Part shown: piece after piece, positions 17,045 to 19,208 of the stretch
Layout of the letters: each line of letters starts with the position of its first letter
Position numbering within the stretch: the first letter of the stretch is position 1
Source of the DNA: Campylobacter sp.
GTDB lineage: Bacteria > Campylobacterota > Campylobacteria > Campylobacterales > Campylobacteraceae
Length of the DNA stretch: 22,077 bases
Reading direction: 5' to 3'
NCBI GenBank assembly: GCA_017940085.1
Contig: JAGAZK010000204.1
Location: 1 to 22,077, forward strand
Translations under genes and position numbers: made by a program
The notes under the pieces: model-generated
Databases searched by the model: none
Seen by the model: the letters and a program-made list of their open reading frames with translations, nothing else
What the model was told of the DNA's origin: nothing

Positions 17045-17809
17045 TTATGCCTTTTGATCCAAATAATCTAAATATTTTGTCAAATTTGATATTTGATGAG
17101 AGTTTAATGCGATAAAATAATCATTTTTTAGATTTTTAAGACTATATTCAAATGGTTTTTTGGTTTTTAGGCAAATCACTGCCCCGCCACTATTTCTAAG
17201 CAAACAATCCCCAGCTGCTATATCCCAAATATTTGATCCACTTATCCTTAGATACACGCTCGCATTACCACTAACTAAATGACAAAATTTAATCGCAGAG
17301 CCACATTTATTTAAATTTAATCCAAATTTAGTCGCAAATTTGGCTGTTTTGCCATTATTTGTCGTTTGATTGCTACAAATTATGGTTTTATCGCCTAAAT
17401 TTGAAGTATTTAGTAAAATATCATTTTTGTAAATTTGACCATTTAGAGTAAAAAAAATCTCATTTTTAAGCGGGATAAAAATCACGCCAAGCGTTGGTTT
17501 TGCGTTTTGGATTAGAGCTATACATACGCAAAATTGCCCGTTTTTTTTGATAAATTCCCTAGTCCCGTCCATAGGATCAACAAGCCAAAATGTGGAAATA
17601 TCATCATTTACTAAAATTTGTTCTTCTGAACAAATTGGGATTTGGGTTTTAATAAGATTTGTAAATATTGCTTCATTTGCTGCTAAATCAGCGCTTGTAA
17701 GCGGGGATTTGTCTGTTTTATACTTCAAATCATAATTATCATAATGCTTTAAAATTGCATTCCCAGCATCAAATGCAGCTCTGACAGCTATTTGCAAAAG
17801 CTCTTTCAA
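17045..17809 (-). CDS. cysQ: 3'(2'),5'-bisphosphate nucleotidase, CysQ type
   Basis: Inositol-monophosphatase-fold enzyme that most likely removes the 3'-phosphate from PAP, a by-product of sulfate assimilation. The 254-residue product has the metal-site motifs in order: 'SEEQ' (Glu62, Glu63), 'DPMDGT' at 78-83 and 'WDIAAGD' at 195-201. The start is a TTG, supported by AAAGGA five bases before it and by the lack of any nearby ATG in frame. The N-terminus 'KELLQIAVRAAFDAGNAIL' is normal for the family. It is followed after one base by the MFS gene. An inositol-1-phosphatase is the main alternative; the 'DGTREF' form favours CysQ. Confidence 0.88.
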   Translation of the reverse strand: MKELLQIAVRAAFDAGNAILKHYDNYDLKYKTDKSPLTSADLAANEAIFTNLIKTQIPICSEEQILVNDDISTFWLVDPMDGTREFIKKNGQFCVCIALIQNAKPTLGVIFIPLKNEIFFTLNGQIYKNDILLNTSNLGDKTIICSNQTTNNGKTAKFATKFGLNLNKCGSAIKFCHLVSGNASVYLRISGSNIWDIAAGDCLLRNSGGAVICLKTKKPFEYSLKNLKNDYFIALNSHQISNLTKYLDYLDQKA

Positions 17810-17829
17810 TTTTATCCTTTAAAACGGCA

Positions 17830-17835
17830 ATTTTA
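17830..17835 (-). promoter_or_regulatory. Possible extended -10 promoter for cysQ-MFS
   Basis: Minus strand TTTGCTAAAAT: TAAAAT with the TGN extension, about 20 bases before the TTG start of cysQ. No clear -35. It adjoins the phased AAATTT tracts. Confidence 0.4.
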
Positions 17836-17837
17836 GC

Positions 17838-17901
17838 AAATTTTGATAAATGGACCAAATTTCCCCAAATTTATTCAAATTTCAAAAATTTTGAAAAATT
17901 T
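17838..17901. promoter_or_regulatory. Phased AAATTT tracts, predicted intrinsically curved DNA
   Basis: Six AAATTT tracts begin at 17838, 17857, 17867, 17877, 17886 and 17896. The steps are 19, 10, 10, 9 and 10 bases, that is one (or two) helical turns apart. A-tracts of the AnTn kind repeated in phase with the helix are known to bend DNA, so the gap between the divergent cysQ and outer-membrane protein genes should be strongly curved. Such DNA commonly activates promoters or binds nucleoid proteins. Periodicity is read directly; curvature is predicted. Confidence 0.6.
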
Positions 17902-17926
17902 AGTGCGATTTAAGCTAATTTTAATA

Positions 17927-17934
17927 GGGGGGGG
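17927..17934 (+). repeat. Poly-G tract of eight G
   Basis: A run of exactly eight G, the only such tract in the window. In Campylobacter, G runs of about eight or more slip during replication and drive phase variation. This one is not in a gene. It lies in the divergent gap and directly abuts TAGAAT (17935-17940), so length changes would alter promoter spacing rather than a reading frame. Confidence 0.85.
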
Positions 17935-17940
17935 TAGAAT
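17935..17940 (+). promoter_or_regulatory. Candidate -10 box for the plus-strand outer-membrane protein gene
   Basis: TAGAAT immediately after the G run matches five of six consensus bases. No -35 is visible at the usual spacing, which would fall within the curved AT-rich DNA. The resulting leader would be about 225 bases and contain the long hairpin. Another promoter nearer the gene cannot be excluded. Confidence 0.35.
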
Positions 17941-18043
17941 AATGCTTTAGAAATTATCGGATTTGTTTTGTCGTTTTGATTTAGTTTGTCGTCAAAATGA
18001 AAGCAAATTTGATTGTTTTAATAAATTTAATCAAGGCACAGGA

Positions 18044-18147
18044 TTTTGGAGCTATTTTGTGGGTTGTGCAGTCCAAACGAGCGTAAATAAGACTTAGAAG
18101 GGTCTATTAAGCGAGTTTGGACAAATCTCCCATAAAATAGCCCAAAA
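18044..18147 (+). promoter_or_regulatory. Long imperfect hairpin in the leader of the outer-membrane protein gene
   Basis: The outer stem TTTTGG (18044-18049) plus GCTATTTTGTGGG (18051-18063) pairs with CCCATAAAATAGC (18129-18141) plus CCAAAA (18142-18147): 19 pairs with one bulged A and one G-U. After an internal loop, GTCCAAAC (18071-18078) pairs with GTTTGGAC (18115-18122). A tip stem AGAC/GTCT (18090-18093 with 18102-18105) closes an eight-base loop. AGGC (18034-18037) and GCCT (18153-18156) could extend the base. The ribosome site AGGAG lies just outside. No T run follows, so it is not a plain terminator. It could be a regulatory or stabilising leader RNA, or a small repeated element. 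Confidence 0.6.
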
Positions 18148-18171
18148 GCCAAGCCTAAAAAGGAGAAAAAA

Positions 18172-18885
18172 ATGAACAAATTTAGCAAATTTGGTGTCGC
18201 TGCAGTATTGGCAGCCAGTATCACAAGCAGTGCAGTAGCTGTAAATTTAGACGGCTTTTTTATCGGAGCCCAAATTGGTGCAAACAAGAGCAAAATGAAT
18301 AATTTTGACAAAATAGTTGATATAGGTGGCGGAATAACGCGTAATGCGAATCCTATGACCGATTCATACTCTGATATTGTGCCAAATTTAGGGTTAAAAA
18401 TCGGTTATGATTTTGATATTGCTAGAGCTTACGGGCTTGTAAGACATAATTTTGAAGCCGAAGATAATTCTAATATTTATAATAATATGGAATATTGGAA
18501 AACAAATATCAATTGGAGTAGCAATGATTTTATTTTAGGAGCTGACTTCACGCCTAAATTTAGCTTATTTAATCAAAATTTCAAGGGCATTTTGGGGCTT
18601 TATACCGGATATTCTATTTTGGATGTGGATTTTAGTTTTGGTAGTTCTATCGCAAGCTTATCTCATAGCTACAGTCAAAATGGCTTTATTTTTGGAGCTA
18701 AACTTGGTGCTATTTATGATTTAAAAGATAAAGGTGAGCTTGAATTTGGCTTTAAATTTGATCAAATCAGCTACAAAGATAAAACAGACGGTATAGATGC
18801 TGGTGGTGTGATACTTACAACTACTGCAAAAGGAGCCAAATTTACAAATACAGGATTGTTTGTGGGGTATAACTACAAATTTTAA
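18172..18885 (+). CDS. Outer-membrane beta-barrel protein, function unknown
   Basis: The only protein gene confidently placed on the plus strand. The ATG follows AAGGAG at about seven bases. The 237-residue product has a signal peptide (cleavage predicted after 'SSAVA', residue 23), then a mature barrel of about 214 residues. It shows alternating strands such as 'GFFIGAQIGANKS', 'NLGLKIGYDFDI', 'FILGADFTP', 'ILGLYTGYSI' and 'FIFGAKLGAIYDL', and ends in 'VGYNYKF' with the terminal Phe of barrel proteins. It resembles small opacity or OmpA-barrel-like proteins in layout. It is divergent from cysQ; upstream lie curved DNA, a G run and a long leader hairpin, so it may be switched or post-transcriptionally controlled. 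Ligand or role is unknown. Confidence 0.85.
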   Translation: MNKFSKFGVAAVLAASITSSAVAVNLDGFFIGAQIGANKSKMNNFDKIVDIGGGITRNANPMTDSYSDIVPNLGLKIGYDFDIARAYGLVRHNFEAEDNSNIYNNMEYWKTNINWSSNDFILGADFTPKFSLFNQNFKGILGLYTGYSILDVDFSFGSSIASLSHSYSQNGFIFGAKLGAIYDLKDKGELEFGFKFDQISYKDKTDGIDAGGVILTTTAKGAKFTNTGLFVGYNYKF

Positions 18886-19208
18886 TTTGACTTTGGTTTT
18901 TTTGGATTATTTTTTAAGAGTTTGCACTGCATTTCCTTGCGACAGGCGTTCAAGCCTGTCTTGGTCATTTGTGCTTCACAACTTAAAAAATATCTCCTTT
19001 GCTTGCAGCTACGAACGCAAGTGAAGCAAAAAATCCTTTGTCAAATAAAAATTCTAAATTCATTTAGTTTTGTTAGCTTAAATTTGCCCTAAATTTAGGG
19101 CAAATTTAAATAAATTTAATTTGCTTGTGTTTAATCGCAATAATTTAGTCTTTGTGGTAGCACCAATACAACCCCAAAAATACAAAACGCTTTATTTTAC
19201 AACTAAAT
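18886..19208. other. Gene-free convergent region with several hairpins
   Basis: 323 bases between the stops of the plus-strand outer-membrane protein gene and the minus-strand 129-residue gene. It holds a GC-rich hairpin GACAGGC/GCCTGTC (18941-18947 with 18954-18960), a larger inverted repeat TGCTTCAC/GTGAAGCA (18972-18979 with 19021-19028) enclosing CTTGC/GCAAG, and the palindrome listed separately. A 26-codon minus-strand frame (19063-18983) has no ribosome site. I see no credible gene here. The hairpin cluster could be a small RNA, a remnant or a dispersed repeat. Confidence 0.5.
19080..19107. terminator. Perfect palindrome, possible bidirectional terminator
   Basis: A 28-bp perfect palindrome: stem AAATTTGCCCT/AGGGCAAATTT with loop AAATTT. 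It lies between convergent genes, where a two-way terminator would be useful. Neither side has a good run of T, so termination is plausible rather than shown. Confidence 0.45.

What the first reader, a model, noticed from the sequence alone, without database searches (positions are those of the whole stretch)
17838..17940. Curved-DNA tract followed by an eight-G run abutting a -10-like box
Six AAATTT tracts step at about 10 bases (one gap of 19), which should bend the DNA. They are followed by G8 that touches TAGAAT. In Campylobacter, G runs of this length are usually phase-variable and mostly lie inside genes; here one sits at a promoter position in a divergent gap before a surface protein gene. 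A change in G number would move the curved upstream DNA relative to the -10 and could turn the outer-membrane protein, or cysQ-MFS, up or down. The repeats are seen directly; switching is inferred.
Basis: partly seen in the sequence, partly recalled or inferred. Interest (0 to 1): 0.7.

Follow-up and report, generated by a model that had tools for sequence, protein, structure and literature searches.

The report
Poly-G promoter switch for surface proteins
A stretch of bent DNA and a run of G's sits inside the likely promoter of an outer-membrane protein gene, and the same switch-like promoter recurs in front of related surface-protein genes in this Campylobacter genome, so the bacterium may turn them up and down one by one.

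Summary
It is not a lone curiosity: the ~100-bp block recurs at eight other places in this genome (81-86% identity). In the eight copies with readable downstream DNA it points at an outer-membrane-protein (OMP) paralogue (six intact including the window's, one cut by a contig end, one split). The block reads as a Campylobacterales promoter: phased A-tracts, TTAAGC, ten bases, G run, TAGAAT. The run thus lies in the spacer between a -35-like box and the -10, as in meningococcal porA. The layout occurs in 43 of 153 family genomes (reversed control 1 of 153), mostly before ORFs that start like exported proteins, and G number differs between otherwise identical sites (G13 against G12 in two Helicobacter species). 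Best reading: slipped-strand changes in G number shift TTAAGC and the bent DNA relative to the -10, making each OMP promoter phase-variable. Switching was not seen; no reads or expression data were available. cysQ-MFS is an unlikely target. The mechanism class is known; the dispersed multi-copy promoter set is the new part.

The parts
17838..17901 (+). Phased AAATTT tracts (six), predicted curved DNA upstream of the promoter
   Evidence: positions and bend scan; A/T tracts conserved in nine copies
17910..17915 (+). TTAAGC, -35-like box (TTTAAGCT invariant in nine copies)
   Evidence: TTAAGC as a Campylobacterales -35 motif is recalled
17916..17934 (+). 19-nt spacer, its second half A+G8 (G9 in seven sister copies, GT+G10 in one)
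17927..17934 (+). G8 tract
17935..17940 (+). TAGAAT, -10-like box (TAGAATAAT invariant in nine copies)
17947..18171 (+). 5' leader if transcription starts near 17947 (inferred); 17947-18175 folds to -78.2 kcal/mol, z -8.1
17950..18019 (+). Leader hairpin 1
18032..18158 (+). Leader hairpin 2, a copy of a dispersed ~125-bp palindromic repeat
18160..18165 (+). AAGGAG, likely ribosome-binding site
   Evidence: read
18172..18885 (+). OMP gene, 237 aa, signal peptide by eye plus predicted beta-barrel; member of a paralogous family
17045..17809 (-). Divergent neighbour, inositol-monophosphatase family (cysQ-like); not part of the switch

Best explanation
The block 17838-17940 is a sigma-70-type promoter of the OMP gene at 18172, one of nine copies of a dispersed promoter module that drives a paralogous outer-membrane beta-barrel family. 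Shown by sequence: phased A-tracts, TTAAGC, ten bases, G tract, TAGAAT, aimed at an OMP paralogue in every readable copy. Shown by comparison: tracts of this type differ in length between otherwise identical sites. Inferred: slipped-strand mispairing adds or drops G's, each step changing the TTAAGC-to--10 distance by one base and turning the bent upstream DNA by about 34 degrees relative to the -10, so polymerase contact and OMP transcription go up or down; with a separate tract at each locus, a population would show a mosaic of OMP combinations.
For: Nine copies whose invariant columns include TTTAAGCT, TTTAAT, G8 and TAGAATAAT. 9 of the 20 runs of G>=8 in this assembly lie in these blocks. 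Mean pairwise nucleotide identity 0.86 for the block against 0.71 for the mature coding part among six full-length paralogues. Same layout, own genome included, in 9 of 16 genus genomes (reversed control 0 of 16) and 43 of 153 family genomes (control 1 of 153); with a stricter pattern 22 of 398 order genomes (control 0 of 398). 7 of the 27 OMP-homologue loci held from other genomes have a G>=8 tract of this layout upstream, six with TTAAGC and one with TTCAGC. Length differences: G13/G12 in H. magdeburgensis/H. bilis, otherwise identical over ~200 bp; G9/G8 at the orthologous OMP of G014/G008 with identical adjacent flanks; G13/G14/G13 in G091/G094/G095; G8, G9, G9, G8 behind one left flank in G008; five G9 and one G10 in Ca. 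H. avicola. Downstream ORFs: 41 of 56 with signal-peptide-like start against 56 of 220 control ORFs; Pfam of 52 of the 56: OMP_b-brl 10, HP_OMP 9, AMP-binding 4, Autotransporter 3. Barrel-like model, mean pLDDT 83.5.
Against: No reads, isolates or expression data for this species: switching is not seen. 7 of 9 copies are G9 (the others G8 and G10), so the assembly shows little length spread; the window copy is the most divergent (75-78% to the five compared, which share 84-97% among themselves), has an A-interrupted G8, and its bend is matched by 17 of 300 shuffles. 20 of 27 OMP-homologue loci in other genomes lack the tract. C. jejuni promoters are described as having a periodic A/T pattern instead of a clear -35 (PMC3656092, passages), so TTAAGC as a contact point is uncertain. 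TTAAGC/TATAAT sites without a G run favour spacing 20-21 (33 of 148 against 17.4 flat, uncorrected, related genomes; 5 of 25 against 2.9 in the own genome), not the 19 of the block, with a second rise at 14-15 (26 against 17.4). For capC, tract length did not track intact/inactive status (PMC7168839). An E. coli-type promoter scan finds nothing here.
Confidence: 0.75

Rival explanations
1. Rheostat by DNA shape alone (a variant of the best explanation, not exclusive with it): the -35-like box does not matter; the G number only sets the rotational phase between curved, UP-like DNA and the -10, as proposed for the T-tract of H. pylori sabA.
For: Phased A-tracts in the nine copies; predicted bend 119-155 degrees in the eight sister copies, 0-2 of 300 shuffles as bent; 20 of 65 comparable promoters from other genomes at or above the 95th percentile of their own shuffles; sabA precedent (PMC4081817, passages).
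Against: TTTAAGCT is invariant in the nine copies; TTAAGC was part of the search pattern, so its presence elsewhere is not independent evidence either way; 45 of 65 promoters elsewhere are not unusually bent and the window copy only weakly so; the sabA tract lies next to the -35, not in the spacer.
Confidence: 0.3
2. Recombination module: the block is conserved because paralogues exchange 5' ends by gene conversion, and the G run is a passive passenger.
For: P0007 joins a signal peptide like that of the C24 paralogue to a mature part with one difference from the C19 paralogue, so 5' exchange may occur; the block is more alike than the coding parts.
Against: Conservation includes all the promoter-like elements; the layout recurs before other surface genes in other genera. 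P0007 could also be an assembly chimera.
Confidence: 0.15
3. Fixed promoter: the G tract is a constant protein- or polymerase-binding feature and does not vary.
For: G9 in seven of nine copies and in 37 of 66 sites elsewhere.
Against: G7 to G14 across 66 sites with spacers 13-24; single-base length differences between otherwise identical sites. G9 is also the commonest length of G/C tracts in Campylobacter generally (53%, PMC6321876, section read).
Confidence: 0.12
4. RNA-level effect: transcription starts upstream, the G tract lies in the 5' leader and acts through RNA folding or a small RNA.
For: A G-tract leader target is known for H. pylori tlpB (recalled); this leader is strongly structured.
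Against: TAGAATAAT directly after the tract is invariant and would put the start downstream of it; leaders of the sister copies differ in length and sequence.
Confidence: 0.07
5. The element controls the divergent cysQ-MFS genes.
For: Only their position.
Against: Upstream neighbours differ in the other copies. The cysQ neighbourhood in other genomes was not examined, and the promoter scan misses both directions, so it does not decide.
Confidence: 0.03

Closest known systems
Spacer-type phase-variable promoters: N. meningitidis porA, fetA, opc
   Same: Homopolymer between -35 and -10 of a surface-protein promoter (PMC2791445, passages; PMC7864442, passages, which places the opc tract over the -35)
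   Different: Those are single genes (porA optimum 17 nt); here TTAAGC with 19, curved upstream DNA, nine copies in one genome
Treponema pallidum tp0126 (OmpW homologue) and tprE/G/J/L
   Same: Poly-G at the promoter of OMP genes, tp0126 with the tract in the -35/-10 spacer; several paralogues carry tracts; 7-11 G seen for tprL (PMC7864442, passages)
   Different: Unrelated bacterium and proteins; no shared ~100-bp curved cassette mentioned in the passages seen
Campylobacter capC autotransporters
   Same: Poly-G in the putative promoter region, length G4 to >=10 among C. jejuni genomes, G9 commonest (PMC7168839, passages and section 8); a C. coli ORF that looks like an autotransporter by eye has this layout here (L163/L211)
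   Different: Single, mutually exclusive genes; the exact promoter anatomy was not set out in the passages seen
H. pylori sabA rheostat promoter
   Same: Homopolymer plus phased A-boxes acting on polymerase binding (PMC4081817, passages)
   Different: T-tract adjacent to the -35, not G in the spacer

Membership tests
Spacer-type phase-variable promoter (porA/tp0126 kind) | Homopolymer between -35-like and -10 boxes | tested here: met
   TTAAGC-N10-G tract-TAGAAT in nine copies; the -35 identity rests on a recalled motif
Spacer-type phase-variable promoter (porA/tp0126 kind) | Tract length varies | tested here: inconclusive
   Varies between related species and between copies; same-species reads not available
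Spacer-type phase-variable promoter (porA/tp0126 kind) | Transcription depends on tract length | not testable with these tools
   needs expression data
Spacer-type phase-variable promoter (porA/tp0126 kind) | Drives a surface protein | tested here: met
   Barrel-like model, mean pLDDT 83.5, matches to solved outer-membrane barrels; the window's own OMP has no Pfam match; five of nine relatives tested hit barrel families at E <= 0.01, most below the curated cut-off
H. pylori sabA-type rheostat | Homopolymer upstream of, adjacent to the -35 | tested here: not met
   tract lies downstream of TTAAGC
H. pylori sabA-type rheostat | Phased A-tracts upstream | tested here: met
C. fetus sap-type switching (single promoter moved by inversion; recalled) | One promoter serves many silent cassettes | tested here: not met
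   each of 8 readable copies has its own promoter block

The most novel reading that the evidence does not exclude
A genome carries a dispersed promoter module in which curved DNA and a slipping poly-G spacer form a self-contained switch; at least eight copies independently gate paralogous outer-membrane proteins, 5' ends are exchanged between paralogues, and the same architecture has been used repeatedly across Campylobacterales (for example Ca. Helicobacter avicola and a Helicobacteraceae MAG with several copies each) as a general transcriptional contingency system besides the known in-gene G tracts.
Probability: 0.55. Interest if true: 0.75.

Novelty: new variant of a known kind. Interest (0 to 1): 0.62.

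Why it matters
Phase variation in Campylobacter is mostly described through G tracts inside genes; intergenic tracts are catalogued, but in what I saw rarely given a mechanism. A recognisable promoter layout (TTAAGC, about ten bases, G tract, TANAAT) lets intergenic tracts be assigned to core promoters from sequence alone, across Campylobacterales, and makes the spacer hypothesis testable by read counts and start-site mapping. If right, this unnamed Campylobacter has a combinatorial OMP surface set by at least eight independent transcriptional switches.

Tried and rejected
Tried without result: Rfam for the block and leader (no match there; only matches below gathering score); OMP query against genome contigs (32 pattern stretches, none a relative); Pfam on the window OMP (0 families); PDB sequence search (five matches, E 0.27-0.44, taken as chance); E. 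coli-type promoter scan (0). Rejected: lone curiosity; cysQ-MFS target; chance G run.

Rows dropped or not seen: searches used only sites whose loci were held (many matches have no locus), left out 11 of the 49 loci as not Campylobacterota by title or as the 14-15-spacer element (L167, L171, L179, L182, L183, L195, L199, L202, L206, L208, L213), and removed duplicates; one search includes two own-genome copies (L135, L138), one search leaves own-genome loci out and could not score the bend of one of 66 sites. One search scanned 52 of the 56 downstream ORFs (L123, L135, L138, L151 not passed). One search used the lists of G006, G004, G008 and G000 only (G001, G010 and the cut-off G014 list unused) and left out sites with G runs. 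One search covers the 27 homologue loci held, not every match. C10 and C33 differ at 2 of 124 positions and both contigs end at the block, so they may be one locus: nine copies means at least eight loci.

Full report
What is there. The window is contig C179 of an unnamed 1.50-Mb, 268-contig, 83.6% complete genome. A same-genus genome, G010, has a 28,302-base contig with the same promoter match and protein as the record 'Campylobacter sp. isolate RGIG9945' of the same length, so the genus is Campylobacter.

It is one of nine. A DNA search of the own genome with 17820-18175 found, besides itself, eight matches at 81-86% identity to the same ~102-bp stretch (about 17855-17956), then a drop to weak A+T-rich matches (58 matches at E <= 1 in all, the tenth at E 1.7e-6). 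Aligned, the nine copies make 129 columns at 88% mean identity; invariant stretches include TTTAAGCT, TTTAAT, G8 and TAGAATAAT. The spacer from TTAAGC to TAGAAT is 19 in eight copies and 22 in the ninth (C19, GT+G10). The window copy has A+G8 where seven others have G9, so its spacer is also 19. 9 of the 20 runs of G>=8 in this assembly are in these blocks; of the other 11, seven lie inside ORFs of at least 80 aa on one strand or the other, and C80, C183 and C262 lie 5-8 nt before a start codon.

What it drives. In 8 of 9 copies an ORF of at least 90 aa starts 89-274 nt after the G run; the ninth, C33, reaches the contig end after 35 nt. These ORFs are paralogues of the window OMP: C10, C45, C19, C24 and C130 intact, C35 cut by a contig end, C253 in two pieces. 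The window OMP has a signal peptide by eye, no Pfam match, and an AlphaFold2 model with eight long strands, mean pLDDT 83.5. The model matches solved outer-membrane barrels (OmpA-type, OmpX, NspA and OmpW chains among them; 95 matches at E <= 0.001), mostly with TM-scores under 0.5 (best 50 seen). Five of nine relatives tested hit barrel families at E <= 0.01, most below the curated cut-off; of the nine, C201 and C215 have no promoter block. Upstream ORFs, present for eight of the nine blocks, differ in kind and orientation, so the block travels with the OMP genes.

Promoter anatomy. TTAAGC/TTTAAG as the -35-like box of H. pylori and C. jejuni promoters is recalled (Vanet 2000, Wosten 1998; not read). 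Dugar et al. 2013 (PMC3656092, passages) report for ~89% of C. [quoted passage not shown] The block has both kinds of feature. As a check, TTAAGC-N12-28-TATAAT sites (poly-G ones included) outnumber the reversed control 275 to 91 in seven genus genomes; among 148 without a G run from four genomes, spacing 20-21 is over-represented (33 against 17.4 if flat, P 2e-4, not corrected, relatives not independent; 14-15 is also raised, 26 against 17.4). That peak is one or two bases longer than the block's 19. Curvature by a wedge model is high in the eight sister copies (0-2 of 300 shuffles as bent) but weaker in the window copy (17 of 300).

Other species. The pattern TTAAGC-N7-14-G6+-N0-8-TANAAT is present in 9 of 16 genus genomes with 0 of 16 for the reversed control and in 43 of 153 family genomes against 1 of 153; made stricter, in 22 of 398 genomes drawn from the order against 0 of 398; all three counts include the own genome. 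The own genome has the most copies in the family (9; next 4 in G008 and G146). Among named records (49 stretches) are C. coli LMG 9860, a C. jejuni isolate, C. aviculae, H. bilis, H. magdeburgensis, and MAGs with several copies (Ca. Helicobacter avicola 6, a Helicobacteraceae bin 5). Of 68 distinct sites with loci in hand, 56 have an ORF of at least 70 aa within 300 nt; 41 of the 56 begin like a signal peptide by a crude rule, against 56 of 220 control ORFs from the same loci (Fisher P 1e-10, or 39 of 54 and 5e-10 without the two own-genome copies; control ORFs were required to be longer, 150 aa). 52 of the 56 scanned against Pfam: OMP_b-brl 10, HP_OMP 9, AMP-binding 4, Autotransporter 3, single hits to a sialyltransferase, LicD and an FkbM methyltransferase (a protein can count in two families). 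Of 27 OMP-homologue loci held from other genomes, 7 carry a G>=8 tract of this layout and 20 do not.

Does the tract change length? Directly in this species: unknown. By comparison: yes. H. magdeburgensis and H. bilis differ only by G13 against G12 over about 200 bp; the orthologous OMP of G014 and G008 has G9 and G8 between identical adjacent flanks; G091/G094/G095 have 13/14/13; four G008 copies with one left flank have 8, 9, 9, 8; six Ca. H. avicola copies have five 9 and one 10. capC tracts range from 4 to >=10 among C. jejuni genomes (PMC7168839).

How it most likely works. Slippage changes the G number; each base changes the spacing of TTAAGC and the -10 and turns the bent upstream DNA about 34 degrees relative to the -10 (recalled twist). 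Transcription of that OMP then rises or falls. Spacer effect and shape effect cannot be separated here. Steps shown: anatomy, recurrence, association with surface genes, length differences between related sites. Steps inferred: transcript start, slippage, effect on expression, biological role.

Known or new. The mechanism class is known: porA, fetA and opc in Neisseria and tp0126/tpr genes in Treponema (passages), and capC in Campylobacter has a poly-G in the putative promoter. PhasomeIt (PMC6321876, passages and one section) catalogues intergenic tracts, 77% of G/C tracts being within ORFs; the C. hyointestinalis genome note says the majority of its 42 and 52 tracts are intergenic or in genes of undetermined function (PMC4945800, passages). 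In searches I saw no paper describing a multi-copy curved poly-G promoter before an OMP family; I saw capped listings and the passages and sections named, no whole paper, and the library lacks most subscription journals.

The leader. If transcription starts near 17947, the 5' leader is about 225 nt; 17947-18175 folds far better than shuffles (-78.2 kcal/mol, z -8.1, 0 of 200). Its second hairpin (18032-18158) is a copy of a dispersed ~125-bp palindromic repeat: a model from five copies has 25 matches in this genome and 43 in G009 at E <= 0.1, and matches in 11 of 16 genus genomes (at most 150 candidates scored per genome). Some matches are the opposite strand of one palindrome or generic long hairpins, so copies are fewer. 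The consensus fold keeps 9 of 41 pairs through changes on both sides, but its covariation term is slightly unfavourable (+1.03), so an RNA function is not shown. The hairpin ends before the ribosome-binding site; its role here is open.

Noticed in passing
window 18032-18158; L222, L223, L224, L225, L227: A dispersed ~125-bp palindromic repeat with, by eye, a conserved internal loop (GGTTGNG ... CTCC); 9 of 41 consensus pairs changed on both sides in five copies, covariation term +1.03. In G001, G006, G008, G011 and G015 a match lies in-frame inside a ~755-aa ORF (cut by the locus end) that by eye is valyl-tRNA synthetase, like the palindromic coding insertions of Rickettsia (recalled).
   Followed up: partly
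L216 (C54:3674), L217 (C73:7523), L218 (C84:1371): TTAAGC promoters with a poly-T spacer: C54 and C73 share flanks but have T14 and T6 (spacer 23 and 15); C84 has T13 before a 440-aa exported-looking ORF.
   Followed up: partly
L114 (C183:12237), L119 (C262:396), L111 (C80:4762): G9-G10 tracts 5-8 nt before a start codon (LysR-like, chemoreceptor-like and one other ORF by eye), i.e. at the ribosome-binding site rather than in a promoter.
   Followed up: no
P0007 against L102 and L103: A database OMP joins the signal peptide of the C24 paralogue to a mature part that differs at one residue from the C19 paralogue: 5' exchange between paralogues or an assembly chimera.
   Followed up: partly
L108 (C253:2887-3586): The OMP behind the C253 promoter is in two ORF pieces; described only.
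   Followed up: no
L167, L179, L206, L213, L182, L195: A similar-looking motif (TTAAGC, 3-4 bases, long G run, TAAAAT; spacer 14-15) recurs in MAGs titled 'uncultured bacterium' (RUG12268, RUG10582) and Gastranaerophilales; it looks like a different repeated element.
   Followed up: no
window 18904-18996 (-): A weaker match to the palindromic repeat just downstream of the OMP gene (26.7 bits).
   Followed up: no
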